Made by a program: the position numbers and the translations under genes. The notes under the pieces are model-generated. The model made no database searches. It had not been told where the DNA came from and worked only from the letters and a program-made list of their open reading frames with translations. A stretch of DNA of 27,450 bases. It comes from a virus. Shown here piece by piece: positions 1,914 to 27,450 of the stretch (positions within the stretch are counted from its first letter, which is position 1; every line of letters starts with the position of its first letter). The stretch is taken from positions 1 to 27,450 of the IMG/VR virus record IMGVR_UViG_3300012920_000205; one strand, written 5' to 3'.

Positions 1914-2090
1914 ATGGACAATGAACTAACTATACAACTGAACCTCAGAATTAATCCCTGCTTGAAGGAGACCTTGGAATCCTTCGCCAAGAAACGGTTG
2001 ACCACCAAGTCGGCTCTCTTGCGTGAAGCTTTGCTAGACCTCTTTGAGAAACATAACGTCGAGTTGGTGCAACCCGAAAAGAGTGAGTGA
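1914..2090 (+). CDS. Ribbon-helix-helix DNA-binding protein
   Basis: This 58-aa protein begins MDNELTIQLNLRINPCLKE. A short beta strand with alternating polar residues (TIQLNLRI) is followed by helix 1 (CLKETLESFAKKR), a turn LTTKS and helix 2 (ALLREALLDLFEKH). That is the MetJ/Arc/CopG ribbon-helix-helix pattern; such proteins bind DNA as dimers with the strand in the major groove. It sits between the iteron/palindrome region and the methyltransferase gene, whose start it overlaps. Likely roles are transcriptional autoregulator or partition-like/origin-binding protein. Confidence 0.75.
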   Translation: MDNELTIQLNLRINPCLKETLESFAKKRLTTKSALLREALLDLFEKHNVELVQPEKSE

Positions 2091-3243
2091 TGTGGATACT
2101 CCCGACGACCTCAACGTTATCAGCGTTTGTACAGGATTGGGGGGTCTCGACATCGGAGCGCATATTGGCTTCGACCGACGAACTCGCCTCAAGTGTATTT
2201 GTGAACGAGAAAGCTATGCGATCTCAATCCTTCAAGCGCGTATGCAACAGGGACGCTTCCCTAGTGCGCCTTGTTGGACAGACCTTGCGACCTTCCCTTT
2301 CCAAGAGTTTCACGGCATACCTAACCTCGCACTATTCGGGGGGTTTCCATGCCAACCCTTCAGCGTATCGGGACTACGCAAAGCCGAAGACGATCCCCGA
2401 CACCTCTTCCCACATATCGCGCGTGGAATCGCGCAATGCGAACCACGGCTCGTGTTGTTGGAGAACGTCGACGGCATCGCTAGTTCCAAGCTCGCAGGCA
2501 AAGAAGAAACAAGTGTTCTCCGATATGTCTTGGAAAGCTTGGAAGGCATGGGTTACATCGCAGAGGCGACTTCGGTCAGCGCGCGAGAAGTTGGAGCAGG
2601 GCACAACCGACGCAGATGGTTCATCCTCGCAGTTTTGGGCGACACCGACGACTGCGGAGGATTACGGATATGCAGGCACGTGGCAGGGCTTTCTAGAACG
2701 GCAAGCCAAGTTCAAGAAGAAGGGAGTGAACCTTCAGAAGAAGTTGGACATTGCAGTACAAGACCCGAAGAACCTTGCAACGACTCATGGCATTTCCCTG
2801 CCCGACCCCACCAAGAACAATTCGCATGGGAGTGCGCTAGAATATTGGCCTACTCCGAGGGCGAACAAAATGGAGGGCTCGACGAACGAGGGCTACGGAG
2901 ATTGTCTCATGGAGAAAGTGATGAACCGCAAGGGAGCGACGAAGAACAAACTCTCGCCCCTGTGGGTAGCGCAACTGATGGGTCTGCCTGCGGATTGGGC
3001 GATACTGCCTCCCTCGTGGGAACAGAGTACCACGGCAAAAAGCTAGACTTTCTAATGAAGTACCGACAACGAGCGTTACGCTTGTTGGGTAATTCGGTTT
3101 GTCCACAACAGGCAACAAGAGCGGTTAGGATTCTTGCTCCGCGCATCGCGCTACGCGCTACAGAACTACTAAGCCCCCGCTGCGGAGATAATTTTTCGAC
3201 CATCGAGGGAATCATCCGACAGTCAACCGACAATCCGCTATGA
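2083..3243 (+). CDS. DNA (cytosine-5) methyltransferase, with frame-displaced target-recognition region
   Basis: This transfers methyl groups from SAM to cytosine C5. Visible motifs, numbered from GTG 2083: motif I VCTGLGGLDIG (about 15-25), motif IV GGFPCQPFS with catalytic Cys90, motif VI ENV (127-129), motif VIII NRRRWFIL (about 175-182), motif X LLGNSVCPQQ near 335. A GTG at 2092 is an alternative start, and both overlap or abut the RHH stop. The frame is open throughout. However, from about 2631 to 3046 the residues expected of the recognition domain (WATPT, WPTPR, LSPLWVAQLMGLPADW) are read in the +1 frame, as described separately. The stop overlaps the next ATG (ATGA), so the nuclease gene is coupled. 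Likely roles are protection from host restriction or part of a modification pair. Confidence 0.8.
   Translation: MSDVDTPDDLNVISVCTGLGGLDIGAHIGFDRRTRLKCICERESYAISILQARMQQGRFPSAPCWTDLATFPFQEFHGIPNLALFGGFPCQPFSVSGLRKAEDDPRHLFPHIARGIAQCEPRLVLLENVDGIASSKLAGKEETSVLRYVLESLEGMGYIAEATSVSAREVGAGHNRRRWFILAVLGDTDDCGGLRICRHVAGLSRTASQVQEEGSEPSEEVGHCSTRPEEPCNDSWHFPARPHQEQFAWECARILAYSEGEQNGGLDERGLRRLSHGESDEPQGSDEEQTLAPVGSATDGSACGLGDTASLVGTEYHGKKLDFLMKYRQRALRLLGNSVCPQQATRAVRILAPRIALRATELLSPRCGDNFSTIEGIIRQSTDNPL
2631..3046 (+). other. Alternative-frame coding segment inside the methyltransferase gene
   Basis: The +1 frame is open from 2087 to the TAG at 3044-3046. From about 2631 it reads like the target-recognition half of phage C5 methyltransferases: QFWATPTTAEDYG, a basic segment, YWPTPRANKMEG and LSPLWVAQLMGLPADW. 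The segment is bounded by T4 (2633-2636) and A5 (3037-3041). One base fewer in the first run and one more in the second would fuse motifs I-VIII, this segment and motif X into one conventional enzyme. It has no convincing start of its own. Explanations are compensating indels, ribosomal frameshifting or sequence error. Confidence 0.55.
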
Positions 3244-3677
3244 GAAATTCAAAACAAAAAGGCACATACTATGAGCAGGCGTTTATTTGCAAATGCTTGG
3301 AGCTAGGCTTGCATCCGCATCCGACCGTGGGAGATTATCTGCCACACGACATGATAGTGCAGAATCAAGTCGGGCGTACCCTGCGTGTGCAGATCAAGGG
3401 AACGGACGCGCTGATGAAGAAGCGTGAGAACGATCCCACTTCGTACACCAAGAAAGGCAGATACCGCATCACCGCCATGAGTGGAAACAAAGCGAACCAC
3501 AAACCCATCGATTGCAAGTTGGTTGATGTGTTGGCGATCTACGTGAGCGAGCACGATGTGATTTATAACATACCCTGTACCGAACTTACTAGCACTGCAA
3601 TTTGGATCGCGCCCCATGATCCGAAGAGCCGAGCAAAGTATGAAAAATATAAGGAGAATTGGGATGTCTATAGATAA
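3240..3677 (+). CDS. PD-(D/E)XK nuclease-like protein
   Basis: This 145-aa protein has a nuclease-type core: Glu12 in KGTYYEQAF, Asp37 in YLPHDMIVQ and Gln51-x-Lys53 in VQIKGTD, spaced as in the small PD-(D/E)XK family that includes group I intron-associated and Holliday-junction-resolvase-like enzymes. The ATG overlaps the methyltransferase stop by 4 bases, indicating coupled translation. The pairing could be a compact restriction-modification unit, or the protein could be a DNA-repair or host-DNA-degrading nuclease. A RuvC-like resolvase follows directly, so a second resolvase role is less needed. Confidence 0.65.
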   Translation: MRNSKQKGTYYEQAFICKCLELGLHPHPTVGDYLPHDMIVQNQVGRTLRVQIKGTDALMKKRENDPTSYTKKGRYRITAMSGNKANHKPIDCKLVDVLAIYVSEHDVIYNIPCTELTSTAIWIAPHDPKSRAKYEKYKENWDVYR

Positions 3678-4173: not shown

Positions 4174-4388
4174 AAACCTACATCCACGTTAACCAACACG
4201 TAGTTCGCAGAAACTCAAAGACAGGGGAGCGTGAACCTGTTCTCACGTGTAAGACTTATAAGTCAAACACCTACGCGCATGAGGTGAAGATCAATGATCA
4301 CACCAAAGTGATCTACAGTCCCGACAAACCGTTGTCCTGCGGTGCTAAAGTTTGGATTGAAACAACCGAAGAAGTTACCTGTGGGTGA
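4170..4388 (+). CDS. Conserved small phage protein of unknown function
   Basis: This 72-aa protein starts at an ATGA overlap with the resolvase gene. Its beta-rich sequence (MKTYIHVNQHVVRRN at the N-terminus and YSPDKPLSCGAKVWIET near the C-terminus) resembles a small protein that I recall next to phage resolvase or modification genes. No catalytic motif is visible. Its position suggests an accessory role in DNA modification or recombination. Confidence 0.7.
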   Translation: MKTYIHVNQHVVRRNSKTGEREPVLTCKTYKSNTYAHEVKINDHTKVIYSPDKPLSCGAKVWIETTEEVTCG

Positions 4389-5346
4389 TACGCAACTGAC
4401 TCTTTTCCCCGAAGCCACCAACTACGATGTGGTTGACCGCCTAGTTACCTACGACAAAGATCATTGTTGGCAGTACGACATTCGGCTCAAGAATCGCAAA
4501 GCCGATCTCGTGGCATCGGGGCTGACGGAAGCGGAAACGCGCTACATCAAAACATCCGACCTCGATTTCTGCGCAGTTCTGCGCACTGACAAAAAAGTCT
4601 GCCGTGAAATTGTAGACTTTATAGAGAGACACGAGTGGTTGGGCAAAATGCCTATGGCGGTGACGCACAGGTTCACGGCTCGCTACAAGGGAATACTTTG
4701 CGGAGTTGTGGTCATGGCAACACCGAACGCTTTTTCAAATTTGTTGGGTGCGGGCACACGGGATTATGAAAAACTTATAGCGCGCGGTGCGTGCATCAGT
4801 TGGTCTCCTGTCAACACGGCATCGTGGCTGATATCAAAGTCGATTGACTACATGGTAAAGAATACTGACTTCCGAGTATTTACCGCTTACTCCGATCCCG
4901 ATGCCAAGGAGTTGGGTACGATCTACCAAGCGTGCAACTTCTTTTATCTAGGTCAGCACTTCGGAGGCGTGAGACAGTTTCTTGATCCGCAAGACTTGAA
5001 GCGTGGTTGGTTTGGCGAGCATGGTTTCAACGACCGATCGCAGATAGTGCGCTATGCCAAAGAGTTGGGATTGGAGTGGCAGGACGAATGGTACAGGAGA
5101 GTTGGGGCTCGCAACCAATACCGAAAAGTAAATTGGGACGCCATTCCTGCCGACGCTGCGCAACTTTTGAAAGAGCTCCGTGTAGCGCACAAGGATCGTT
5201 GCCAAAAAAGAATTTCAACAAAGAAGCATAAGTACGCATACATCAAGGGGGTTGACAAGCGAGAGACCCGAAGCCTCTTGGCAAAGTTTCGCCTAGCCAA
5301 TCCCGATCTAAACGTATTTGATTATCCAAAGGAACGAGGCAAATGA
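4381..5346 (+). CDS. Mom-like DNA modification protein (GNAT-type fold)
   Basis: This is about 321 aa from GTG 4381, which overlaps the previous stop; the in-frame ATG 4342 is an alternative. The core has HRFTARYKGILCGVVVMATP, then ISWSPVNTASWLISKSIDYM and FTAYSDPDAKELGTIYQACN followed by FFYLGQ. The motif Y(A/S)DP...GTIYQAxxFxYxG is the hallmark I associate with phage Mu Mom and relatives, GNAT-like proteins that hypermodify adenine and protect phage DNA from restriction. A basic C-terminal part (residues about 255-320, KDRCQKRISTKKHKYAYIKG) is probably DNA-binding. With the C5 methyltransferase upstream this suggests layered DNA protection. The chemistry cannot be read from sequence. Confidence 0.65.
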   Translation: MGDTQLTLFPEATNYDVVDRLVTYDKDHCWQYDIRLKNRKADLVASGLTEAETRYIKTSDLDFCAVLRTDKKVCREIVDFIERHEWLGKMPMAVTHRFTARYKGILCGVVVMATPNAFSNLLGAGTRDYEKLIARGACISWSPVNTASWLISKSIDYMVKNTDFRVFTAYSDPDAKELGTIYQACNFFYLGQHFGGVRQFLDPQDLKRGWFGEHGFNDRSQIVRYAKELGLEWQDEWYRRVGARNQYRKVNWDAIPADAAQLLKELRVAHKDRCQKRISTKKHKYAYIKGVDKRETRSLLAKFRLANPDLNVFDYPKERGK

Positions 5347-16267: not shown

Positions 16268-16307
16268 TTGACAAGCTTACTATTATGTGTTACATATTAT
16301 ATACAAC
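16268..16307. promoter_or_regulatory. Divergent promoter region between the leftward pair and the integrase
   Basis: Rightward: TTGACA (16268-16273), a 17-bp spacer and TACATA (16291-16296) with TATTAT just beyond. Leftward: the complement of 16295-16302 contains TATAAT, with a TTGAGG about 15 bp upstream inside the integrase 5' end. The two would overlap, a common arrangement for mutually exclusive lytic/lysogenic expression. Confidence 0.5.
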
Positions 16308-17483
16308 ATGAAAACACCTCAAAAAAAATCTGTTACTTTACGAACACGTAAAGGCACTCTTATATATAAAACACCCACGGGTTATAGATATAAGGTAATA
16401 CGTGCAGGACGGCAACATTATTTTCCACTAGGCATTGACGTAGAGCGTGCTAAGAAACGTGCCGACGACATACGAGATCATTTGGCTATCCATTCCGTAG
16501 ATGAAGTTCGGGCGAAATTTCATCCAAAACACATCAGCAAAGTTTCCGCAAAAAACGAAACTGTGGAGAACTTACTTATAGCGCACGAGGCTATTGCAAG
16601 CTCGTTGGGCATCCGAAAGCGGACTGCCAAAGATTATCGACGAGGGCTTCTTTTCGTGATTCGTGAGGCGTTTGACATAAGCAAAGCGCAAGCTCTTAAA
16701 CTAAATGTGTCCGCTCTGAATGAATCTTTAGTGTGGAAGGCGAAGCAAAATTATTTAAACAAGCGAAACATTTTTGACAACGCTTGTAAGCGAACTTTTA
16801 ACAGTCATTTACGAAATGCGCAGTCTGTGTTCACGAAAGACGCAATCAGCGCCTACAAAGGATACGAACCTACTTGGGATTTTTCTGCGGTTCGGGAGGC
16901 TTTTCAAAAAGCCGATCAATTTAAGCGTGTTAAGAAAAAGTGGAAATGTCCCTCAGAAGGCATGATAAACAACATTCATTGGAACTTGGAGAATGTGGCA
17001 GGCGGAGAGTTGTACACTATATTAGCTTTGGCTTTTTATGGCGGTTTGCGGTGCTCTGAAATTTCGGCAATGCAATGGTCATGGTGCAGTGACACGTCAC
17101 CGTCCTCGCCCGACGATGTGAAAATAGACGTAATAAGCGCAGGCAATTTTAATGCTAAAGGCAGGCAAGGTTACACGATTATGAAACGCACCCAATGGCA
17201 ACGAATCCTAGATCGCAAAACTGCTTTTGGCACGTGCCTCGTGCGCTACAACAGTCCTAGAGTCATCAGCCAAAAAGCTTCTGAGTTTTTGAGAAAAACC
17301 TGTAATTTAAATGTGCAAAAACCTTTACACGAACTTCGCAAGATTTGCGGAGCTTATTTCGCCTCCGTACATGGACTTTATGGGGCTCAACTTTACCTTC
17401 GACACGAAGACCCTAAAACAACCTTTGACCATTACAGTGGAGTTATTTTATCCGACACGTGCTTGACATTGTGGGACAATTAA
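16308..17483 (+). CDS. int: Tyrosine-type integrase
   Basis: ATG 16308 gives 391 aa; an upstream GTG in frame would run into the promoter. There is a basic N-terminal arm-binding-like domain (about 1-80, RTRKGTLIYKTPTGYRYKV) and a core-binding region (about 90-200). The catalytic domain has Arg248 in GGLRCSEI, Lys284, His341-x-x-Arg344 in HELRK, His366 in LRHED and Tyr376 in DHYSG. All six tyrosine-recombinase residues are in place, so the enzyme should be active. It integrates or excises the phage genome. The attP site cannot be identified from this window. Confidence 0.9.
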   Translation: MKTPQKKSVTLRTRKGTLIYKTPTGYRYKVIRAGRQHYFPLGIDVERAKKRADDIRDHLAIHSVDEVRAKFHPKHISKVSAKNETVENLLIAHEAIASSLGIRKRTAKDYRRGLLFVIREAFDISKAQALKLNVSALNESLVWKAKQNYLNKRNIFDNACKRTFNSHLRNAQSVFTKDAISAYKGYEPTWDFSAVREAFQKADQFKRVKKKWKCPSEGMINNIHWNLENVAGGELYTILALAFYGGLRCSEISAMQWSWCSDTSPSSPDDVKIDVISAGNFNAKGRQGYTIMKRTQWQRILDRKTAFGTCLVRYNSPRVISQKASEFLRKTCNLNVQKPLHELRKICGAYFASVHGLYGAQLYLRHEDPKTTFDHYSGVILSDTCLTLWDN

Positions 17484-18078: not shown

Positions 18079-18548
18079 ACTTTTAATTCTACCCCATGCT
18101 TTTCTGCAAACTCATCTATAGCGGGTTTAGGCCCTCTTTTGCAGTTTTCGTCAGTCCAACCATAGTCGTCGCCTGTTAAGTAACCGCCCTTTTTAACAAA
18201 GGGGGCTAGGTGCTCTAAATCTTTTTTGACGGCTTCGTAGCTATGATCTCCGTCTAGATATAGCCAATCGAAAAAACCTTCTTTAAAACTAACCTCTGTT
18301 GAGTACGCTCGGTGAATGGTGACTTCTTCTCGGTCTTTAAAATCTTTTTGCACTTGCCGATAGATTGCATCCATTTTCTCTTGGGCAACAGAGTACAATC
18401 GATTTTTGTAGTCTTGATGAACCCACGGGTCGATTAGATGTAGCGCGCTAGGCTTGCGGTTAAGGATGGCTTTCGCAAAAGCGCCTTTCCAAACACCAAC
18501 TTCTGCACAAACAAAACCTTCTTTGATTAAGCTAAGAGGTTTCCTCAT
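18045..18548 (-). CDS. Class I SAM-dependent methyltransferase
   Basis: I chose the ATG at 18546-18548, which overlaps the upstream stop (ATGA); the 217-aa frame from 18698 shadows the previous gene. The 167-aa protein has motif I VCAEVGVWKGAFA, the acidic LHLIDPW after strand 2, and DWLYLDGDHSYEAVKKDLE followed by KKGGYLTGDDYG. That is the Methyltransf_24 family, often sugar or small-molecule O-methyltransferases. As the last gene of an operon with glycosyl- and sulfotransferases, it probably methylates the same glycan; that is an inference. Confidence 0.8.
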   Translation of the reverse strand: MRKPLSLIKEGFVCAEVGVWKGAFAKAILNRKPSALHLIDPWVHQDYKNRLYSVAQEKMDAIYRQVQKDFKDREEVTIHRAYSTEVSFKEGFFDWLYLDGDHSYEAVKKDLEHLAPFVKKGGYLTGDDYGWTDENCKRGPKPAIDEFAEKHGVELKVYKRKQFALLL

Positions 18549-20380
18549 AAAGTGTTTTGTAAAATGTAGCCGATCTCTACATCTTTCAACAACCAAGAAG
18601 CATTGATCTGCGAGATTATGTAAATACGAAGCTTTAACTGCTTGCCCCTCATGTTGACGAACACTTTGACTTCGTCGTCTAAAATCTCGCCCAACCATCT
18701 ACCTGTTTCAAGACCGTCTTCGGTTTGAGCGTAGACTCCTAGATATCCTAAAGAACCTGTTTTGAATTTCAAGAAGACTTCCATGAAGTTTTTCATAGAT
18801 TCGGGAGCTCCCATGTCTTCGTAAGCGGTTTCAATCACGCTCAAGGTTGATTGCGAAAACTTTGTGTAGTCGTTTAAGTTTGCAGGCAGGGCAGTTTCTT
18901 CGGGTCTACTGAAAGCGCCTGCGTAGTTCATTGGGCTGACCGTACCCTCGCCTTCGTAAAAAAGGTTTAACTGATCGGAACTGACGCCTCCTAGTTGAAT
19001 GAACCCTTGGCGCGCTTGGAGAGGCACATTGTTATTGTTCGCAAGAACCTGTACGGATTGCGGTGCATTGGAGTATTTTAAATAAACGTTTGGGCGTTGC
19101 GCTAGGGGAGCGGATGGGAACGGCGAATTGAAAGATGCCGTTTCTCTCAAGTCAGACAAATCAGTGCTCCAAAAGTTCCCGTCTTGGTCGATGCCCAATA
19201 GCGCGCTAGTATCCTCCATTTTGGTCACAGCTTGAAACCTCGGATATAAATTAGGCCCGCTCAGTGCAAAAGTTTCACCGTTGTACAAGAACATGGGATA
19301 TCCTTTTTCAATCCCCGTTGACAGGTGCGGGACGCACGCTCCAAAGAATTCCGCGCTAGGCTCATAGGTTGTGAATGACCCCGTCAAATCCACATCCAAG
19401 TATCTGTTCCAAGCGTTGACGGCTTTCCACGAAATGATTTCGCCCACACGCCCTTCAGTCATGTGATCTTGTCCCGCTCGCGCTGCTTCATCCTTGTATA
19501 TCTGTCCGTCAGTTCCGAAATAGAAAGGACGAACTCCCATGTTTGCACTAGCGCTATTTGGATTCAAAGCACCGCTGAACGTGGGGCTCGCGGTTTGGCG
19601 GACGCGGTAGCCTGTACCCGCTTGATTCTTTTCCGTTCGATACAGTAGCGCAACTCCTTTGTCAGTGTGTACGACCACATAGTTTCTGTATGTTGATAGT
19701 GCCGTGATTCGTGTGGCTTCAGACATGATTATTGAAACGGTACTCAACACTCCACTAAAGATACCTTGGATAGCGTCCTCTACATCGGGATTAGCGATGG
19801 TGGCAGGCTCGGAAACATAGACATCCATCGGGTTATCCTTGTTTCCCGTGGCATAAATAGCTTTGTCAGGCCCGACTACAAAACTAGTGCAGGCGGGAAA
19901 AACCTCAAAGGCCTGGGCATAAAGTTTGTCGGGCTGTTGTTGTAGCGCGCTAAAACCGTAATTCGTCGCTGCGCCGAATCTTTGGTTAGGGTTCACCCCG
20001 TCCCCCAAAAACAGTTCACTCCCGACCTTGCTAATGAACGAGCCGTTTAAGGCGTCCACTGCCACGTCTACGCTTGCGTTGGTTGCGGGTGTTTTTTCAA
20101 CGCTAGTCGTATCGGAAATCCACGACATACCGTTAACTACGTTTGTAGCGGTGTCTTTACTGATTACCACTCTGTGTCCATTATCGTCCAACAATGTTAT
20201 CAAGCCGTTTGTAGGTAGCGTCACGCCTGTGTAAACACGCTTCCACAGGGGAGCGTTCCTCACGCAACCTTTAGGGTACGGCACTGCGTTTTCGCACAGT
20301 GTCAGCGAGCCCCTGTCTTGGTCAGTTTCTTCGGCTTGGTTTTGTATTCCGCTAAAATTTTTAACTCTAAAGTATCTCAT
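18545..20380 (-). CDS. Probable virion structural protein
   Basis: This 611-aa protein begins MRYFRVKNFSGIQNQAEETD, with LCENAVPYPKGCVRNAPLWK following. An NFSGI-type start followed by a listing of ENA/residues and then repeated beta strands (YRNYVVVHTDKGVALLYR, FYFGTDGQIYKDE, LLGIDQDGNFW) is what tail-tip or head-tail stabilisation proteins with a beta-propeller show. Gly/Asn/Ser-rich composition and the length fit. I cannot name the exact protein. SD AGAG precedes the start, which overlaps the glycosyltransferase end by 14 bases. Confidence 0.55.
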   Translation of the reverse strand: MRYFRVKNFSGIQNQAEETDQDRGSLTLCENAVPYPKGCVRNAPLWKRVYTGVTLPTNGLITLLDDNGHRVVISKDTATNVVNGMSWISDTTSVEKTPATNASVDVAVDALNGSFISKVGSELFLGDGVNPNQRFGAATNYGFSALQQQPDKLYAQAFEVFPACTSFVVGPDKAIYATGNKDNPMDVYVSEPATIANPDVEDAIQGIFSGVLSTVSIIMSEATRITALSTYRNYVVVHTDKGVALLYRTEKNQAGTGYRVRQTASPTFSGALNPNSASANMGVRPFYFGTDGQIYKDEAARAGQDHMTEGRVGEIISWKAVNAWNRYLDVDLTGSFTTYEPSAEFFGACVPHLSTGIEKGYPMFLYNGETFALSGPNLYPRFQAVTKMEDTSALLGIDQDGNFWSTDLSDLRETASFNSPFPSAPLAQRPNVYLKYSNAPQSVQVLANNNNVPLQARQGFIQLGGVSSDQLNLFYEGEGTVSPMNYAGAFSRPEETALPANLNDYTKFSQSTLSVIETAYEDMGAPESMKNFMEVFLKFKTGSLGYLGVYAQTEDGLETGRWLGEILDDEVKVFVNMRGKQLKLRIYIISQINASWLLKDVEIGYILQNTL

Positions 20381-21032
20381 TGTAGTTACTCTCTATGTCT
20401 TTGGTTAAGTATTTAAAATTAACATCTACTGATATTGTCGTACTGCAAACCGCGCATAGCGTTTTCCAAGCCCCTTGATCGTCGAACTTATCTTTCGCGC
20501 GCGTCAGCGTCGCGCGCAGCGCGTGCAGTCTAATTATAATATCACAGTACTCGTCAAAACGGTCTGTCCGCGCTACAAACAGTCCTGCACAAGGCCCGTC
20601 ATGCCCCAATATGTTTTTCATTTTTCCCCTAAACCATTTATATCTTGGAAATCCAAAGTTCGATCGTTGAAAAACTATATCGTTTTCTCCAAGTATTTTT
20701 TCACACATACTAGGTTTCGGCGCTTGCCATAAAAAACCGTCGTCGGAGTCTACATATATAAAGTGCTTATGCCCATCTGCTTTAAAACGCGCACACTGCT
20801 CTTTTGCGGAAAGTATTTTTTCAAACCACGACCATTTTGTGCGCCTGTCGCAAACAAAAAGGGGCTCACCATTTCCGATTATTTTTTCTAAAAGAGTTAT
20901 GGGGTAGTTTGTTGTGGTCAGCACAGGCACTTCAAATGGTTCTGAAGGAGCACGCACCTTACCCGAAATAACTGCTCTTTTTAAGTGTCTCTTACAAGCA
21001 GACTTGGTGTTATGATTTACAAGCTTTTCCAT
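20367..21032 (-). CDS. Putative GT-A-type glycosyltransferase
   Basis: This 221-aa protein has FEVPVLTTTNYPITLLEKI at the N-terminus. HKHFIYVDSDDGFLWQAP follows in the middle: hydrophobic strand plus DSDD, like the DxD metal/nucleotide-sugar site of GT-A enzymes. FGFPRYKWFRG and GPCAGLFVARTDRFDEY further resemble acceptor-site loops in sugar transferases. The assignment is structural guesswork from motifs and from the adjacent Stealth and sulfotransferase genes. It overlaps the upstream gene by 16 bases. Confidence 0.5.
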   Translation of the reverse strand: MEKLVNHNTKSACKRHLKRAVISGKVRAPSEPFEVPVLTTTNYPITLLEKIIGNGEPLFVCDRRTKWSWFEKILSAKEQCARFKADGHKHFIYVDSDDGFLWQAPKPSMCEKILGENDIVFQRSNFGFPRYKWFRGKMKNILGHDGPCAGLFVARTDRFDEYCDIIIRLHALRATLTRAKDKFDDQGAWKTLCAVCSTTISVDVNFKYLTKDIESNYNEIL

Positions 21033-21658
21033 AGCGCTAGGTCTTGAGCGTACACTTTGTTTATGACTTCGCGCGCTTCGCTAGTTACCTCTGTTTTAGG
21101 TTTGTTGATCGTTATGTTGGTTGGAGCTAGAACTAGTGAGATATTAACCATCTCTTCTAAATAACTAGTTATAGTTTTGTTCATATCTTCATATTTGAAG
21201 AGCTTTAGATACGGATATAGCTCCCACTTCTTCTCTTTTTTACGCTTTTTTCTAGTCCGTAACCAAAAACACTGCGGTTTGAGGTGAACTTGACTCATGT
21301 AAACATTTTGCAAACCCCTTAACACGAAGTCTTCAAAATCTTCATAGTCCCCTAACACGCGAGTCGCGTCGCGTGCATCTTTTGACGTGTGTCGTTGCCC
21401 ACCATTTTTAAGATACCAATACGCTGAAATTAGTCGCTCGGTCGGCTCTCTTATGACTGCGTGGACGGTGGGATCAGTGTTTAGGTGCATTCGCCCCACT
21501 CTCTCCAACAATGTTTTTTTACTAGCCCCCCTGTGTACGAGAATTTTTACATTCCGTATGTGCCTCTTTAACGCCCTACGAACCGATATCCCTCCTGTTT
21601 TGGGAATGTGTACAAACACCATAGGCTCTGCAAGCGATATGGGGACATGGAAACTCAT
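21017..21658 (-). CDS. Sulfotransferase
   Basis: This 213-aa protein has the PAPS 5'-phosphosulfate loop FVHIPKTGGISVRRAL (about 15-30) and the 3'-phosphate motif VIREPTERLISAYWY (about 67-81), diagnostic of the Sulfotransfer_2 family, whose members often sulfate carbohydrates. It moves sulfate from PAPS to an acceptor, probably the glycan made by the neighbouring transferases. A lysine/arginine run (RTRKKRKKEKKWE) lies near residue 135. The start is at an ATGA overlap with the Stealth-like gene. Confidence 0.85.
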   Translation of the reverse strand: MSFHVPISLAEPMVFVHIPKTGGISVRRALKRHIRNVKILVHRGASKKTLLERVGRMHLNTDPTVHAVIREPTERLISAYWYLKNGGQRHTSKDARDATRVLGDYEDFEDFVLRGLQNVYMSQVHLKPQCFWLRTRKKRKKEKKWELYPYLKLFKYEDMNKTITSYLEEMVNISLVLAPTNITINKPKTEVTSEAREVINKVYAQDLALWKSL

Positions 21659-22386
21659 TGCTCAAATCTTGATTTTTTTGGAAATAGGGACTCTACCGCT
21701 TGTTTCATCTCATCGGAGAAACTGTTGTCGTTAAAATTTAAGTACCGACTTTCAGATAGCCTTTTCTTCATCGACTCGACGGTGGGTTGTTTTCCATAAA
21801 AACCCGCCCGCACTTTGCCGTCATTTATGTGCGCTATTTCGGGCGTGTCCACTGTGTTAAAATACAGTGAAAACACGCAGTAACCGATGTCGTGACCGTA
21901 GTCAAAATTTAAGTATGTCCATAGCTTAGACTTTTCTAGCACATACGGAATGTGTCCTTCGTAGTCTCGTTGAGGATGTCCGTTCTTTTTTAACACCTCC
22001 TTAGTTCGCCAAAGGCGCTGCGCCCATTTGTTGTTGGCGAAGTCCTTCTTTTCCATGTTCTTCATGTCCTTGTTGTAGTACGGCTTTATATCACTGTCCC
22101 ACGTAGGCTGAAGAAAGAAGTGGTCGTCGCTCATCATAATGAACTTTTCAGTCAAAGCAGGCTCATACCCCAATCTAACTATTTTGGCTATTAAGTTAGC
22201 GTCTTTGTTTCGTTTGTACGGGTCGCCTTGCTTGATGTGCGTAATAGCTTTAGTCCAAGGAGGGTTGTGCCCGATAATCCACACTCTTTCCAAATTACGG
22301 TAGTGTGTTTCGAGGGATCGTAAACTATAGCGCAGTTCCCAATCGTTTAGAGTGGACTCGGACGAAACCATATAAACTGCATCCAT
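21655..22386 (-). CDS. Stealth-type sugar-phosphate/glycosyl transferase
   Basis: This 243-aa protein has WELRYSLRSLETHYRNLERV followed by WIIGHNPPW at the N-terminus and KFIMMSDDHFFLQP in the middle. These match conserved regions 1-2 of the Stealth family (hexose-1-phosphate transferases of capsule synthesis and the GlcNAc-phosphotransferase of lysosomal targeting). The acidic DDHF is the probable catalytic/metal site. Its acceptor is likely a glycan or protein decorated by the nearby sulfotransferases. It is translationally coupled to the CxxC gene by TAATG. Confidence 0.75.
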   Translation of the reverse strand: MDAVYMVSSESTLNDWELRYSLRSLETHYRNLERVWIIGHNPPWTKAITHIKQGDPYKRNKDANLIAKIVRLGYEPALTEKFIMMSDDHFFLQPTWDSDIKPYYNKDMKNMEKKDFANNKWAQRLWRTKEVLKKNGHPQRDYEGHIPYVLEKSKLWTYLNFDYGHDIGYCVFSLYFNTVDTPEIAHINDGKVRAGFYGKQPTVESMKKRLSESRYLNFNDNSFSDEMKQAVESLFPKKSRFEQ

Positions 22387-22604
22387 TATAGACCTCTTCT
22401 TATTTTGTTGAGCAACTCCGTTTGCTTACGCTTGTTCTCAGCAACTTGCTCTTCGTGCGTTTGCTTGTGTTGCGCGCTTTTGTAGGGAAACATTTTGTTT
22501 AGTTTCTCCTGTCGCTTTTTACACGCACCACATTGTTTGATACCCATTGCATTGGTGACTTTTTTAATGGTGTCTCCCAACCCTTTGCTTTTATTATCCG
22601 CCAT
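22386..22604 (-). CDS. Small CxxC phage protein
   Basis: This 72-aa protein begins KGLGDTIKKVTNAMGIKQCG and has CGACKKRQEKLNKMFPY then a charged helix. A Cys-x-x-Cys followed by a RQxKLNxMFPY motif recurs in a small phage family I recognise without known function. AGGAGGTAATT directly precedes the ATG, one of the best Shine-Dalgarno sites in the window. It separates the long modular protein from the Stealth gene. Confidence 0.7.
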   Translation of the reverse strand: MADNKSKGLGDTIKKVTNAMGIKQCGACKKRQEKLNKMFPYKSAQHKQTHEEQVAENKRKQTELLNKIRRGL

Positions 22605-22613
22605 AATTACCTC

Positions 22614-24551
22614 CTATGAACAGTATGTTGTTTTAACTCCGCAACTGTTGTCGCACACACAGCTACAAATTACTTGCCAATTGGGCACGTTCTGCTGAAC
22701 ACTCGTTGTTGTTGGCTTTACCCAAATAGTGTCTCCCGCATTTACCGTAAAGCGCGCAGCGTCTTCCGCATTTGCAATTTTACTGTATTCGTTGGCTACG
22801 CCCTGCGAGTAAAGTCCAACCCACTCGTAAAGATACTGACATTCGCTACAACCCGAATCAGTGTACAGTGCTGACGTGCATTGCGCTTCATAACAATCCT
22901 CGCCTGCGGGGCATCCTGCACACGTGGTTACTGCAACAGGATTCCAAGGTTCAACGTTGAAAGAAGTTCCTTGCGTAAGTCGATATTTGGCAAAGCCTCC
23001 GCCTGCGCCTGCTTGTGCCCAAACTTCCGCTCCTGCTTGATAAGTAGTGCCCGAATTGTACATATTCAAACCGCCACCCGAAGAGCCCGTAATAGGTGAG
23101 CACATATTGTCGTAAAACTGATCGCAGTCATGTGTTTGGGGATCGTTTTCTATTATGCAACACCTACAACTTGTGTTTGACGATCCTTGGTACTTACTCC
23201 ATTCACTATAGTAGCCTTCGGGAACTCCTTCGTCCTTTAAAGCATCCGCTTCACAAGCCGTAATAGATGACGGAGAACCTATTTCGTAGCACACCCCGCC
23301 GTTTGTTACTGTGCCATACACGCCGTTGTCAAAAAAGTTGTCCGCCGAAACAAATCCATTGGGATACGGACTCGTAGCTATGTTTCCGTTTGCATCTGTT
23401 TGAGCAGGGAGGTCGGGATCACTACATACGGTTGGAGATGGATAATGCCACCACTCCGTTGAGTCAGAACAGGAGCTAGGACAATCAGAAATTAGTTGTT
23501 CGTTGATCTCATCACTTTGGTTTGTGTAGCGCCCTCTGTTTAATGTAGTGCCGTCAGCGAGCTCTAGTACGCATTTTGATTCAAAAGCAAAACCGTTTGT
23601 TTGCGGAATTTCCGCACAGTCCGTTATTTCCACTCCATTGTAACATTGACCAACAACTTCCGCACAATCGGGGCAACCTTCTCTTTCGCAGGCATGACTG
23701 TAAATGAGGTTGCCGTTCAGTTTAGTAGCGCCTGCTCTTGTAACATCAATAGTTCCTTTGTCAGTTGTAAGTGTACAAATAACGGCATCACTAGCAGTGA
23801 GGTTTTCACAACCGTCAACGGGGTCTACCGAAGTTACGGTGTGTAGCATGGTGGGATCGCACGGAGAAGAATTGCCTTCACAAAAACAGTCGCCTACCTC
23901 ATATTGACAATCGCACGGAAGCGAGCTTGAGGATGAGGAAGCGGATGGAGATGATGGAGATGATGGAGATGATGTGGCTGAAGACGGGGACGAAGTCGAA
24001 CCGCAAGGGGGCGACTGCGCGCTAGAGCACGGTATAGAGACTCCCGCGTTATTGTTGTTAGGGTCGGAAGCGGGGTTTGCGTTTAAAGTTATGCCGTAGC
24101 CGTAATCTGATACGGATTGTACTATATAAATTTCACTGCCGTAACACACTTCATCGCCCGCACTGAAATTGCAAGATTCGCTAGACGATGAAGATGGAGA
24201 GGGGGCTGAAGATGTCGAGGACGGTGAGGGAGAAGAAGACGGGGACGGTGAAGACGAAGGAGAGGGAGAGGGAGAGGGAGAGGGAGAGGGTGAAGGGGAA
24301 GAGGAAGCGGGTGACATCGATGGCGAAGGGGACGGCGAACCCGAAAAAGAAGGTGTGCTAGGGGGCACGGAGCTCCCGCTTGGCTGAGAACCGCCGTCAC
24401 ATTCTTCGCAATCAGCATACTCTGTACCCGATAATTCGCTATAGTTTCCGACATTCGCTGCGGAAATGGCAGTGCCCGCAGTTACTGTAGCGCAATCACC
24501 GTCTACTTTCATAACTGCATTTAAATTAGGGTCTTTTGTTTTGTATGGCAT
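22614..24551 (-). CDS. Ser/Pro-rich, Cys-rich modular protein (possible fibre)
   Basis: This 645-aa protein has GAGGAGG before ATG. After an N-terminal 60 residues comes a linker of SPSP/SSPS repeats (about 60-125). Two small Cys-containing modules follow, CNFSAGDEVCYGSEIYIVQ and CQYEVGDCFCEGNSS, separated by another Ser/Pro linker. A long Cys-rich beta-type region (about 230-645) has more than 30 Cys, many as CxC or CxxC pairs (CRCC, CSCVCDNSC). No signal peptide is seen. The beads-on-linker layout suggests a surface fibre or appendage stabilised by disulfides or metal; the linkers would suit O-glycosylation. Confidence 0.6.
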   Translation of the reverse strand: MPYKTKDPNLNAVMKVDGDCATVTAGTAISAANVGNYSELSGTEYADCEECDGGSQPSGSSVPPSTPSFSGSPSPSPSMSPASSSPSPSPSPSPSPSPSSSPSPSSSPSPSSTSSAPSPSSSSSESCNFSAGDEVCYGSEIYIVQSVSDYGYGITLNANPASDPNNNNAGVSIPCSSAQSPPCGSTSSPSSATSSPSSPSSPSASSSSSSLPCDCQYEVGDCFCEGNSSPCDPTMLHTVTSVDPVDGCENLTASDAVICTLTTDKGTIDVTRAGATKLNGNLIYSHACEREGCPDCAEVVGQCYNGVEITDCAEIPQTNGFAFESKCVLELADGTTLNRGRYTNQSDEINEQLISDCPSSCSDSTEWWHYPSPTVCSDPDLPAQTDANGNIATSPYPNGFVSADNFFDNGVYGTVTNGGVCYEIGSPSSITACEADALKDEGVPEGYYSEWSKYQGSSNTSCRCCIIENDPQTHDCDQFYDNMCSPITGSSGGGLNMYNSGTTYQAGAEVWAQAGAGGGFAKYRLTQGTSFNVEPWNPVAVTTCAGCPAGEDCYEAQCTSALYTDSGCSECQYLYEWVGLYSQGVANEYSKIANAEDAARFTVNAGDTIWVKPTTTSVQQNVPNWQVICSCVCDNSCGVKTTYCS

Positions 24552-24607
24552 TGTTCTTCCTCCTCAATATGATATGCGCCTAGTTTTCTTCTGTCGAGAT
24601 TATTGCG

Positions 24608-25297
24608 CTACGCGCTATAGCTAAAGTTTTCAAAATCTAATTTATTGTAATTGTAAACAATCTCTCTCATCTCAGTAGTATAAACATTCTCCCAAGGTTC
24701 GTGTTTCGTAGCCCCGTGTTTTGGTAAAGGGATGAATCTACTGATTCCAATTTCTCTTAAAATGTGAGCCCACGATTCTTCTAAGTTTTCATAGCGCCCC
24801 ACATAGTCCACCAAAGGGTCTTTCTTGTCATCGAAACGCCAATATAAAAATTTTGTTTGTATGCATCTGTGATGCTCCCACAAGTCTTCTAACTTATCTT
24901 TATCAGTGCCCGTGTATGTACCACGCCCCATACTCAACACAAAGTGCTCAAAATTCTCAAAAGCGTTCCAAGGGTGGTACAAATCAGCGTGAACTGTCGG
25001 GTTAGTATATTGAGGATATTGAGTGTACATCGAGTACAACGACAGGAGCATATCATAAGGATTGCGAACTATTGAAAAAACAAAGCTCTCGTCCCAACGA
25101 CTTTCTCCCAAACTTTTTTTCAAACCTCTCGCCCACGAATGCTTCCACCATTCGCCCGTGTCGGGGTTCTTTTTCGTTAGCTCAAAGTCTATGTTAAATT
25201 TGTCGCACAGAGCCAACTCTATGGAAGTGCCTGCCGTCTTACCAATGTGTACAAACACAAAAGGTTTCGTGAGCCGTGTTTTAGTATTCGTGATCAT
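24608..25297 (-). CDS. Sulfotransferase
   Basis: This 229-aa protein has the PAPS-binding loop FVFVHIGKTAGTSIELAL (about 13-30) and the 3'-phosphate motif FSIVRNPYDMLLSLYSMY (about 73-90), the carbohydrate sulfotransferase signature. It differs substantially from the second sulfotransferase of this operon, so two positions or acceptors may be sulfated. It starts at an ATGA overlap with the propeller gene upstream. Three conserved acidic/aromatic segments later (FLYWRFDD) are usual in the family. Confidence 0.85.
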   Translation of the reverse strand: MITNTKTRLTKPFVFVHIGKTAGTSIELALCDKFNIDFELTKKNPDTGEWWKHSWARGLKKSLGESRWDESFVFSIVRNPYDMLLSLYSMYTQYPQYTNPTVHADLYHPWNAFENFEHFVLSMGRGTYTGTDKDKLEDLWEHHRCIQTKFLYWRFDDKKDPLVDYVGRYENLEESWAHILREIGISRFIPLPKHGATKHEPWENVYTTEMREIVYNYNKLDFENFSYSA

Positions 25298-26298
25298 ATT
25301 GCTTGCAAGTTTTTAATTAAATCTGTTTTAGGTATGCAGTAACACGAACTGTGTGAGTCGCCCTCGCCCGCTGTCACTAAAATGTTGTCTTCGGTTTCTA
25401 GCGCACCCGAAAAGTACACGACTCCATCGTGCCTGCCCTCGGCTGACCCTCCACCCGTTATCGGTTTTGGGGTAAACGCCACGGGTTCGTGACCGTACTT
25501 TGAAAACAATAGCGCGTGTTGATAGTAAACTCTGTTGCGTGACTTGCCTAGAGGTGTGCAAAACTGATGGACGAACATCAAGTACACTTCGCCATACCCG
25601 TCCAAGTTAACTAGAATTGGGTTTGTGGAGTTTGCTACAAACTTGTGGTTTCTCCTAGGCAATCCTTTAAAAGTTTCTTTTTTGTTCAGAACTTTACCCA
25701 AAGCATCGCAGTGCAGTACGACAAACGGTTCGATGGAGTAAACGCAAAACAACTCGTCTTCTTCGCTAAAAAAGCACCAATTCTTTTCTTCCCTACCCAT
25801 CTCAAGGTGGTCACTAGCGTCCATCTCCCGTATATACGAAATTCTACCTTCCTCTAAAGTTCCTAGCGCGGTTCGACTCCTAGCTATTTTCTGAGGCCAT
25901 CCGTTATTAAAATAAAAGTAGTTCGTAAAATTTACATAGGTTTTCTGTCTGTGCCGAAATATTCGCCAATCTTCGGGACGACACGCCATAGGCATACCCG
26001 ACTCTATTGGATGTGGTTCGCTATGCAGGCTAATTGAATCGTTGTTCACGAAACCCGTCGCAATCATGGGGACTGCTTTTTCTTCTAAAAAATGCCCCTT
26101 CCAAGTGTTGTTGGTAGGTTCTGCCCTAAATATTAGTGTAGCTTCGTTGCCTGTAGCGCAGACGGACGGGTTAAAAATACCCTCTTCGCTGTGCGGGACT
26201 GCTCCCGCTTTTATCAAAGGGCGTTTGGATATGTTGGCGGTACTACACAAGTCCAACCGTTCTTTGTTTAGTTCTGTTACTAGCTCTGCTTGTTCCAT
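25294..26298 (-). CDS. Glycosidase/phosphorylase-like beta-propeller protein
   Basis: This 334-aa protein shows the repeated blade pattern of five-bladed GH43/GH130-type propellers: GIFNPSVCATGNEATLIFRA near the N-terminus, MACRPEDWRIFRHR, MGREEKNWCFFSEEDELFC, VYSIEPF and GGGSAEGRHDGVVYFSGALE. The FNPSV, RPEDWRIF and EKNWxxF...YSIEP motifs resemble GH130-like mannoside phosphorylases and related transferases. It could trim, transfer or bind sugar on the modular fibre or host surface. A TAATG overlap couples it to the upstream modular protein. Confidence 0.6.
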   Translation of the reverse strand: MEQAELVTELNKERLDLCSTANISKRPLIKAGAVPHSEEGIFNPSVCATGNEATLIFRAEPTNNTWKGHFLEEKAVPMIATGFVNNDSISLHSEPHPIESGMPMACRPEDWRIFRHRQKTYVNFTNYFYFNNGWPQKIARSRTALGTLEEGRISYIREMDASDHLEMGREEKNWCFFSEEDELFCVYSIEPFVVLHCDALGKVLNKKETFKGLPRRNHKFVANSTNPILVNLDGYGEVYLMFVHQFCTPLGKSRNRVYYQHALLFSKYGHEPVAFTPKPITGGGSAEGRHDGVVYFSGALETEDNILVTAGEGDSHSSCYCIPKTDLIKNLQAI

Positions 26299-27450
26299 TA
26301 GTATAAACCACTACTCGACGGAGATGATGAATAAGAGGGGGTCGAGGGCGAAGATGGGGAGGAGTGTGAGGGTGCGCTACTGCTAGGCGAAGGGCTCGGC
26401 GAAGGGGACGGCGAAGGGCTAGAACTCGGCGAACTTACGGATGCACATGGGTCTACCGTTACCGTATACCAAATTTCAGATGAGCTTGAACTGCTACTAG
26501 GCGAGGGGCTAGGACTTGGACTAGGACTTGGGCTAGGTGAAGGACTTGGACTTGGGCTAGGGCTAGGGCTAGGTGAAGGACTAGGCGAGGGACTCGGTGA
26601 AGGACTAGAACTTGGCGAACTTACGGATGCACATGGGTCTACCGTTACCGTATACCAAATTTCACTAGAAGAACTCGGCGAACTTGGGGAACTTGAACTC
26701 GGCGAACTTGAACTCGGCGAACTTGGGGAACTTGAACTCGGCGAACTTGGGGAACTAGAGCTCGGCGAACTTGCGCTAGAACTTGGTGAACTAGAACTTG
26801 GGGAACTAGGTGAACTAGGTGAACTAGGTGAACTAGGTGAACTAGGTGAACTTGGGGAACTAGGTGAACTAGAACTTGGAGAACTTGCGCTAGAACTTGG
26901 TGAACTAGAACTTGGAGAACTTGGAGAGCTAGAACTTGGAGAACTTGGAGAACTTGGAGAACTTGGAGAACTTGGAGAACTAGAACTTGAGCTAGAACTT
27001 GGTGAACTTGGGCAGTTATCGTAATCGCCACAATTAACAGTTATAACTTCAGCACCTCCCCCGTATTCAAGCTCTACTTGATTCCCCGTCACAGACAAAA
27101 CTGTGTATGTTTTACATATACCTTCGGCTTCGTCGTAGCGCTCATACACATCACCCACTTGTGCGTCACAAGAACTAGAACTAGAGCTAGAACTTGGTGA
27201 GCTAGGAGAACTAGAACTTGGTGAGGAGGGGCTAGGCGGTGAGCTTGAAGAACTAGGGCAACTGCAACACTTGCAACAATGGCACGGATCGGGGCAATCA
27301 AAATCGTGAGTGTGGGGGTGAGAATGATCGTCGTCGTGATCGTGGTCGTGGTCGTGATCGTGAGAATGGTCGGGGAGAGAGTGCGAGTGGGGGTGTGAGT
27401 GAGGGTGTGAGTGAGGGTGTGAGTGAGGGTGTGAGTGAGGGTGTGAGTGA
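26298..27450 (-). CDS. His-rich, Cys-cluster, Ser/Pro-linker modular protein, N-terminus beyond the window
   Basis: The frame is open from the right edge to the stop at 26298-26300, giving at least 383 residues. It does not need to start at the GTG at 27156-27158. The visible order is: a His-rich stretch (27306-27449, HPHS repeats then DHDHDHDHDDD; 22 His in 48 residues), CPDPCHCCKCCSC (27258-27296, 7 Cys in 13), a Ser/Pro linker, a module CDAQVGDVYERYDEAEGICK with YTVLSV, a long SSP-repeat linker, and two copies of an EIWYTVTVDPCASV module. The HxH arrays can bind Fe, Zn or Ni; iron-binding HxH motifs are known at phage fibre and spike tips. Confidence 0.75.
   Translation of the reverse strand, partial: HSHPHSHPHSHPHSHPHSHPHSHSLPDHSHDHDHDHDHDDDHSHPHTHDFDCPDPCHCCKCCSCPSSSSSPPSPSSPSSSSPSSPSSSSSSSSCDAQVGDVYERYDEAEGICKTYTVLSVTGNQVELEYGGGAEVITVNCGDYDNCPSSPSSSSSSSSPSSPSSPSSPSSPSSSSPSSPSSSSPSSSASSPSSSSPSSPSSPSSPSSPSSPSSPSSPSSSSPSSSASSPSSSSPSSPSSSSPSSPSSSSPSSSSPSSPSSSSEIWYTVTVDPCASVSSPSSSPSPSPSPSPSPSPSPSPSPSPSPSPSPSPSPSPSPSSSSSSSEIWYTVTVDPCASVSSPSSSPSPSPSPSPSPSSSAPSHSSPSSPSTPSYSSSPSSSGLY
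26428..26664 (-). repeat. 51-bp perfect direct repeat inside the modular protein gene
   Basis: Bases 26428-26478 and 26614-26664 appear identical over 51 bp, 186 bp apart. They encode the two EIWYTVTVDPCASV modules. Identity at DNA level, including third codon positions, indicates recent duplication or recombinational homogenisation. Confidence 0.85.
26670..27006 (-). repeat. Degenerate short tandem repeat coding SSP linker
   Basis: Units of 9 bp (such as GAACTTGGA, GAACTAGGT and GAACTCGGC on the plus strand) repeat in higher-order blocks of about 18-120 bp. On the minus strand they encode Ser-Ser-Pro. Long identical blocks suggest replication slippage or unequal recombination; the linker length may vary between relatives. 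Confidence 0.8.
27391..27450 (-). repeat. Five perfect copies of a 12-bp tandem repeat
   Basis: The unit GGGTGTGAGTGA is repeated exactly at 27391, 27403, 27415, 27427 and 27439 and runs off the right edge. On the minus strand it encodes the four-residue repeat HSHP. The full array length is not visible. Confidence 0.95.

What the first reader, a model, noticed from the sequence alone, without database searches (positions are those of the whole stretch)
2083..3243. C5 methyltransferase whose recognition-domain motifs lie in a second frame, bounded by homopolymers
Motifs I, IV, VI, VIII and X are in one continuous frame, yet the WPTP-type and LxPxWVxxLMGxPxxW motifs expected between VIII and X are in the +1 frame, from a T4 run (2633-2636) to an A5 run (3037-3041). 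The catalytic frame also stays open, reading DTDD, LAYSEGEQ and LGDT segments like those of other methyltransferases. I notice that WPTPT-type codons read in the neighbouring frame give LADxD/LAYSE-type strings, so the two family variants may be frame-switched versions. Two products with different specificities could come from one gene by slippage.
Basis: partly seen in the sequence, partly recalled or inferred. Interest (0 to 1): 0.65.

Follow-up and report, generated by a model that had tools for sequence, protein, structure and literature searches.

The report
Two-subunit DNA methyltransferase, fully overlapping genes
One phage DNA stretch of about 950 bases is read in two frames from start codons that overlap or nearly touch, apparently making the two complementary halves of one DNA-methylating enzyme; the same layout recurs in about a hundred other viral sequences and in many bacterial genomes.

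Summary
Frame 1 (alpha, 2092-3243) carries C5-methyltransferase motifs I, IV, VI, VIII and X. The +1 frame (beta, 2090-3046) carries the WPTP-type recognition region and motif IX (LSPLWVAQLMGLPADW). The closest relative (L007) has the same layout, and codon-position constraint switches frame at ~2633 and back at ~3044. This is therefore not a sequencing error.

Of 70 distinct best alpha relatives in IMG/VR, 64 have the nested layout. Under synonymous shuffling of beta, alpha stays open across the recognition region in 108/117 loci (2.5 expected). Under shuffling of alpha, beta stays open across the catalytic region in 107/109 (5.6 expected).

The homopolymers are not conserved. In 79/109 loci both frames appear to start at one ATGTGG: ATG for beta, GTG for alpha. 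The window has GTGATGTGG.

Best explanation: a naturally split, two-subunit C5 methyltransferase, alpha catalytic plus motif X, beta recognition plus motif IX, working like M.EcoHK31I. Here beta spans nearly all of alpha and the two are probably co-initiated. I found no description of this co-start, full-overlap variant in the open-access papers searched. No expression or enzyme data exist here.

The parts
2092..3243 (+). alpha ORF (frame 1): C5-cytosine methyltransferase catalytic subunit, 383 aa from GTG 2092 (or 386 aa from GTG 2083)
   Evidence: PF00145 E 8e-25 over residues 8-186; Foldseek best matches M.HhaI/M.HaeIII
2090..3046 (+). beta ORF (+1 frame): 318 aa from ATG 2090, recognition region plus motif IX
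   Evidence: open frame; phrog_1008 E 1.1e-6; 84% identical over the recognition region in L007
2083..2095 (+). dual start: alpha GTG 2083 or GTG 2092, beta ATG 2090 (GTGAGTGATGTGG); the upstream RHH ORF stop TGA (2088-2090) overlaps the beta ATG
   Evidence: ATGTGG at the same place in 79 of 109 nested loci
2122..2151 (+). motif I (SVCTGLGGLD), alpha frame
   Evidence: alignment A7
2338..2364 (+). motif IV with catalytic PC (GGFPCQPFS), alpha frame
2461..2469 (+). motif VI (ENV), alpha frame
2602..2631 (+). motif VIII (HNRRRWFILA), alpha frame
2633..3043 (+). recognition region and motif IX selected in the beta frame; alpha reads a poorly conserved, mostly low-confidence linker here, with one conserved island FPARPHQEQFAWECAR (2791-2838)
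   Evidence: codon-phase switch; alpha pLDDT below 50 at residues 204-230 and 252-313
2951..2998 (+). motif IX (LSPLWVAQLMGLPADW), beta frame
   Evidence: near-invariant in 36 aligned beta proteins
3070..3114 (+). motif X (RALRLLGNSVCPQQA), alpha frame
   Evidence: confident helices at alpha residues 318-360
1914..2090 (+). upstream ribbon-helix-helix-like ORF, stop overlaps beta start (possible translational coupling)
   Evidence: Pfam RHH hits below the curated cut-off, E 6e-4 to 0.04; conserved in L007
3240..3677 (+). downstream PD-(D/E)XK nuclease gene overlapping the alpha stop (ATGA); conserved in L007 but found in only one other fetched locus
   Evidence: PF11645 E 6.9e-11

Best explanation
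The locus encodes a naturally split, heteromeric C5-cytosine DNA methyltransferase whose two subunits are read from the same ~950 bases in two frames. Alpha (frame 1) folds the catalytic, AdoMet-binding large domain (motifs I-VIII) and, after a weakly constrained linker where the recognition domain would be, supplies motif X. Beta (+1 frame) supplies the recognition region and motif IX. The two chains assemble into one enzyme; each alone should be inactive. Both are probably initiated at one translation start region with adjacent or overlapping start codons (AUG for beta, GUG for alpha), not by slippage. Shown by sequence: both frames open, conserved and selected, with constraint alternating between frames. 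Inferred: the co-initiation mechanism, assembly, activity and site specificity.
For: (1) Motif partition. (2) Relative L007: gap-free alignment over 2092-3043; differences at frame-1 codon positions 1/2/3 are 20/17/38 of 98 over 2339-2632, 58/14/18 of 137 over 2633-3043 (frame-2 third positions vary), 8/8/38 of ~66 over 3044-3243. (3) Nested layout in 54 + 10 of 70 distinct best alpha relatives in IMG/VR and 48 of 80 bacterial genome loci. (4) Alpha open through the recognition region in 108/117 viral loci versus 2.5 expected under beta-synonymous shuffles, third frame 0 versus 0.02; bacterial loci 58/59 versus 7.5. (5) Beta open over the catalytic region in 107/109 versus 5.6 expected, with stops absent back to the alpha start. 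(6) ATGTGG start in 79/109; in 48 of these no alpha-frame start codon within 60 nt upstream, leaving the GTG inside ATGTGG. (7) Alpha model: confident 1-203 and 318-360, mostly low in between. (8) Precedent: M.EcoHK31I has motifs I-VIII and X in one chain and IX in the other (PMC3404938).
Against: No expression, binding or methylation data. Beta alone was predicted with low confidence (mean pLDDT 55.8), which fits a partner-dependent chain but does not prove it. In the window the alpha start is ambiguous (GTG 2083 or GTG 2092). Evidence that the beta N-terminal 80 residues are functional is modest (beta identity 0.72 versus 0.66 for the third frame in 35 pairs). The loci are related, so counts are not independent. 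PMC3404938 places the predicted recognition domain of M.EcoHK31I in the larger subunit, unlike here.
Confidence: 0.87

Rival explanations
1. Programmed frameshifting or slippage: the ribosome or polymerase shifts +1 near 2633 and back near 3040, giving one full-length methyltransferase (or two isoforms of different specificity).
For: Constraint switches frames near both runs, and a single chain would hold all motifs in order.
Against: T4 absent in L007; TTTT near the first junction in only 8/109 and AAAAA near the second in 5/109 relatives. Needs two opposite shifts. Does not explain why alpha stays open through the recognition region (108/117) or why beta stays open over the whole catalytic region (107/109) with a conserved start codon.
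Confidence: 0.05
2. Sequencing or assembly error (a missing or extra base at each homopolymer) in an ordinary single-frame methyltransferase.
For: Errors at homopolymers are common; the window is a single viral metagenome record.
Against: An independent contig (L007, ~79% identical) has the same two frames without indels; about a hundred more distinct viral loci and 48 bacterial loci from other assemblies share the layout.
Confidence: 0.01
3. Only beta-with-fragments or only alpha is functional; the other frame is open through base composition, or is a decaying remnant.
For: Alpha identity over the recognition region is at the background of the third frame (0.508 versus 0.497).
Against: Synonymous shuffles exclude composition for both frames; motif X is conserved downstream in the alpha frame (C region identity 0.79), and motif IX is among the most conserved parts of beta.
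Confidence: 0.04
4. Alpha and beta are both real, but beta starts internally (as in the Paenibacillus phage Bloom pair and, from memory, M.EcoHK31I) rather than at ATG 2090.
For: Firmicute members have beta 5' limits at about -56 relative to motif IV; Bloom beta starts just upstream of motif IV.
Against: In the window's group beta-frame stops are absent back to about -240 relative to motif IV, MWILP is conserved at ATG 2090, and alpha synonymous divergence is reduced over the first 80 codons.
Confidence: 0.12

Closest known systems
M.EcoHK31I (YGGCCR), two-polypeptide C5 methyltransferase; M.EaeI is its relative from memory
   Same: Motifs I-VIII and X in the larger chain, motif IX in the smaller (PMC3404938); from memory, the small chain is encoded inside the large one's gene in another frame and both are needed in vitro.
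   Different: From memory its beta is ~176 aa with an internal start; here beta is 318 aa, starts next to the alpha start and overlaps nearly all of alpha. The recognition region is clearly in beta here, whereas PMC3404938 puts the predicted one in alpha for M.EcoHK31I. Site specificity unknown here.
M.AquI (CYCGRG), two-subunit C5 methyltransferase
   Same: Catalytic motifs I-VIII in one chain, motif IX with part of the recognition region in the other.
   Different: In M.AquI motif X is in the small subunit (PMC3404938). Mycobacteriophage Zaka gp91/gp90 and Streptomyces phage Samora gp34/gp35 look like this split type.
Paenibacillus larvae phage Bloom BLOOM_56/BLOOM_57
   Same: Annotated nested pair, both called DNA cytosine methyltransferase; motif IX in the +1 frame and motif X in the outer ORF.
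   Different: Beta starts internally (235 codons with stop). The 2018 genome paper lists two methyltransferase genes; no comment on the overlap turned up in a term search of it.
Synechococcus phage Ssp-JY39 / Yong-M2-251
   Same: Co-start nested pair with ATGTGG; beta MWLYVP..., motif IX LNPLFVEWLMGWP.
   Different: Only one product is listed at the place in each record: a hypothetical protein in the beta frame in JY39, a cytosine methyltransferase in M2-251.
ShiLan-type hidden HNH endonucleases in actinophage methylases (PMC11855218)
   Same: A second frame hidden inside a phage methylase gene.
   Different: There the second frame is a homing endonuclease in an insertion, not a subunit of the enzyme.

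Membership tests
C5-cytosine DNA methyltransferase (Pfam PF00145) | Motifs I, IV (PCQ), VI (ENV), VIII in order in one chain | tested here: met
   Foldseek E 3e-13 to M.HhaI
C5-cytosine DNA methyltransferase (Pfam PF00145) | Recognition domain and motifs IX and X in the same chain (single-chain members) | tested here: not met
   Recognition region and IX are in the +1 frame, X in frame 1
M.EcoHK31I-type split methyltransferase | Motifs I-VIII and X in the large chain, motif IX in a separate chain | tested here: met
   definition from PMC3404938
M.EcoHK31I-type split methyltransferase | Small chain encoded inside the large one's gene in another frame (feature from memory) | tested here: met
   beta 2090-3046 inside 2083-3243; both frames under selection
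M.EcoHK31I-type split methyltransferase | Predicted recognition domain in the large chain | tested here: not met
   Over 2633-3043 selection acts on beta; alpha identity equals the third frame
M.EcoHK31I-type split methyltransferase | Both polypeptides required for activity; YGGCCR specificity | not testable with these tools
   needs expression and a methylation assay
M.AquI-type split methyltransferase | Motif X in the small subunit | tested here: not met
   Motif X is in the alpha frame
Programmed frameshift gene | Conserved slippery sequence at the frame junctions | tested here: not met
   T4 in 8/109, A5 in 5/109 relatives
PHROG 1008 (phage DNA methyltransferase) | Profile match of the +1 frame product | tested here: met
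   37 of 37 beta proteins match

The most novel reading that the evidence does not exclude
A widespread phage and prophage enzyme class in which two complementary subunits of one methyltransferase are encoded over ~1.1 kb of fully overlapping, co-initiated frames (overlapping start codons AUGUG on one ribosome-binding site), each chain carrying poorly conserved linker where the other carries conserved domain. Subunit ratio would then be set by AUG/GUG competition.
Probability: 0.7. Interest if true: 0.75.

Novelty: new variant of a known kind. Interest (0 to 1): 0.62.

Why it matters
Long same-strand dual coding of two full-size proteins is rare in prokaryotes, and here it seems to be the rule for a whole clade of methyltransferases. 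Gene callers often keep one frame, so many annotated 'DNA cytosine methyltransferases' are probably half an enzyme and their partners are missing or 'hypothetical'; neither Pfam nor NCBIfam gave a meaningful hit for beta. It gives a compact system for testing how one ribosome-binding site serves two frames, and a source of naturally split methyltransferases such as those used for targeted methylation.

Tried and rejected
Slippage at the homopolymers: runs not conserved. Sequencing error: excluded by L007 and many other loci. Chance openness from composition: excluded by synonymous shuffles with a third-frame control. A restriction-modification pair with the downstream PD-(D/E)XK gene: conserved next to the enzyme only in L007 and found (minus strand) in one other fetched locus, so not pursued. 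Structure of beta alone: low confidence, not searched further. Curated families for beta: none meaningful in Pfam or NCBIfam; no solved-structure relative by sequence. The primary M.EcoHK31I paper is not held. Promoter scan upstream: nothing. A further beta scan of viral contigs was fetched but not analysed.

Full report
OBSERVATION. Frame 1 is open from 2038 to 3243 and reads the C5-methyltransferase motifs I, IV, VI, VIII and X; the +1 frame is open from 2087 to 3046 and reads WATPT (2636), WPTPR (2846) and the motif IX string LSPLWVAQLMGLPADW (2951). Pfam PF00145 matches frame 1 only over residues 8-186. PHROG 1008 matches the +1 product over residues 84-304, and its last positions (motif X) match frame 1. 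The window is a whole 27,450-base virus record.

NOT AN ERROR. The closest relative, L007 (IMG/VR 3300046103_002699), encodes frame 1 at 70% and the +1 recognition region at 84% identity, with no indels over 2092-3043. Substitutions by frame-1 codon position 1/2/3 are 20/17/38 of 98 over 2339-2632 (frame 1 selected), 58/14/18 of 137 over 2633-3043 (the position that is third in the +1 frame varies), and 8/8/38 of about 66 over 3044-3243 (frame 1 again). Over 2633-3043 frame 1 is 51-57% identical, the same as the unused third frame (50-55%), while the +1 frame is 83-86%. Over 2092-2338 both frames are about equally conserved (81% and 77%, third frame 61%).

HOW WIDESPREAD. A sample chosen by alpha similarity alone gave 70 distinct viral loci: 54 nested by motif search, 10 more whose motif IX was missed by the first pattern but is present in the +1 frame, 4 split, 1 with an early alpha stop and 1 cut by the contig end. 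Of 80 bacterial genome loci, 48 are nested, in Verrucomicrobia, Alphaproteobacteria, Firmicutes and others. In the viral survey motif IX lies in the +1 frame in 118 of 121 loci.

TESTS OF DUAL CODING. Shuffling synonymous codons of beta over the recognition region leaves alpha open in 2.5 of 117 loci on average; observed 108; third frame 0 observed, 0.02 expected. In bacterial loci 58 of 59 observed, 7.5 expected. Shuffling synonymous codons of alpha over -219..+288 around motif IV leaves beta open in 5.6 of 109; observed 107; third frame 2 observed, 0.13 expected. Beta-frame stops are nearly absent back to about -240 relative to motif IV, i.e. to the start of alpha. For the window alone the probabilities are 0.005 (alpha over the recognition region) and 0.014 (beta over the catalytic region). 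The loci are related, so these counts are not independent trials. In 35 disjoint pairs, alpha third-position divergence is 0.18-0.25 in the first 80 codons, 0.16-0.36 over motifs IV-VIII, and 0.46 in the C-terminal stretch after motif IX; alpha identity in the recognition region (0.508) equals the third frame (0.497). Alpha keeps one conserved island there, WPxRPxExQxxWExPR (window FPARPHQEQFAWECAR).

STARTS. In 79 of 109 nested viral loci the alpha/beta start is ATGTGG: ATG TGG (beta, MW[IL]LP) and, two bases on, GTG GAT (alpha, MDT). In 48 of those 79 no alpha-frame ATG, GTG or TTG lies within the 60 nt upstream; 61 of 79 have an SD-like string in the 18 nt upstream by a loose definition. 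Seven others read ATGACATGG, two ATGs five bases apart in the two frames. In 86 loci with a dual start beta has a median of 368 aa, alpha 383.5, and the overlap is 1,101 nt. In the window, alpha may start at GTG 2083 (aligned to ATG in L007) or GTG 2092; beta at ATG 2090, overlapping the stop of the upstream RHH ORF (TGATG). Firmicute members instead have beta limits near -56, hence internal starts.

STRUCTURE. The alpha model (AlphaFold2, 36-sequence alignment) is confident over residues 1-203 and 318-360 and mostly below pLDDT 50 over 204-313, i.e. where beta carries the recognition region; its best Foldseek matches are M.HhaI and M.HaeIII. Beta alone is low confidence. No heterodimer prediction was possible.

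MECHANISM. Shown: two frames, both open and selected, with complementary motif sets. Inferred: the products are the two subunits of one C5 methyltransferase, alpha giving catalysis and motif X, beta giving recognition and motif IX; both are made from one start region by initiation at adjacent or overlapping start codons. The slippage idea needs two opposite shifts at runs that are not conserved and leaves the openness of both frames unexplained.

COMPARISON. M.EcoHK31I has the same motif partition (PMC3404938) and is called naturally split (PMC3439449). From memory its beta is a shorter nested product with an internal start; the primary paper is not held. M.AquI differs in having motif X in the small subunit. 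Literature searches found no description of the co-start full-overlap layout or its spread; the library covers only part of the literature. Annotated phages show the practical effect: Bloom lists both frames, Ssp-JY39 only beta as hypothetical.

VERDICT. A real dual-coding locus; new variant of a known kind; interest 0.62.

Noticed in passing
4342-5343 (+): A Mom-like DNA modification gene (PF25680 E 1e-11; phrog_1384) two genes downstream of the PD-(D/E)XK gene, so this virus may modify its DNA in two ways; conserved in L007.
   Followed up: partly
3240-3677 (+): PD-(D/E)XK nuclease gene overlapping the alpha stop codon; conserved in L007 but found in only one other fetched locus.
   Followed up: partly
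16287-17483 (+): Weak integrase-like match (phrog_1 E 3e-9), with the following genes on the minus strand: possibly a temperate virus.
   Followed up: no
18545-27450 (-): Minus-strand block with a sulfotransferase (24608-25297) and a Stealth-CR2-like protein (21655-22386, below the curated cut-off), unusual for a phage; the other large proteins tested there have no Pfam match, and the two tested have no PHROG match.
   Followed up: no
L002 1522-2521, L004 1507-2563: Mycobacteriophage Zaka gp91/gp90 and Streptomyces phage Samora gp34/gp35 are M.AquI-like split C5 methyltransferases with overlapping ends, annotated as two methyltransferases.
   Followed up: partly
PHROG 1008 and PHROG 363/116: Beta-type and alpha-type products of such loci sit in different PHROGs; phrog_1008 seems to mix beta products with chains that also carry motif X in the same frame.
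   Followed up: no
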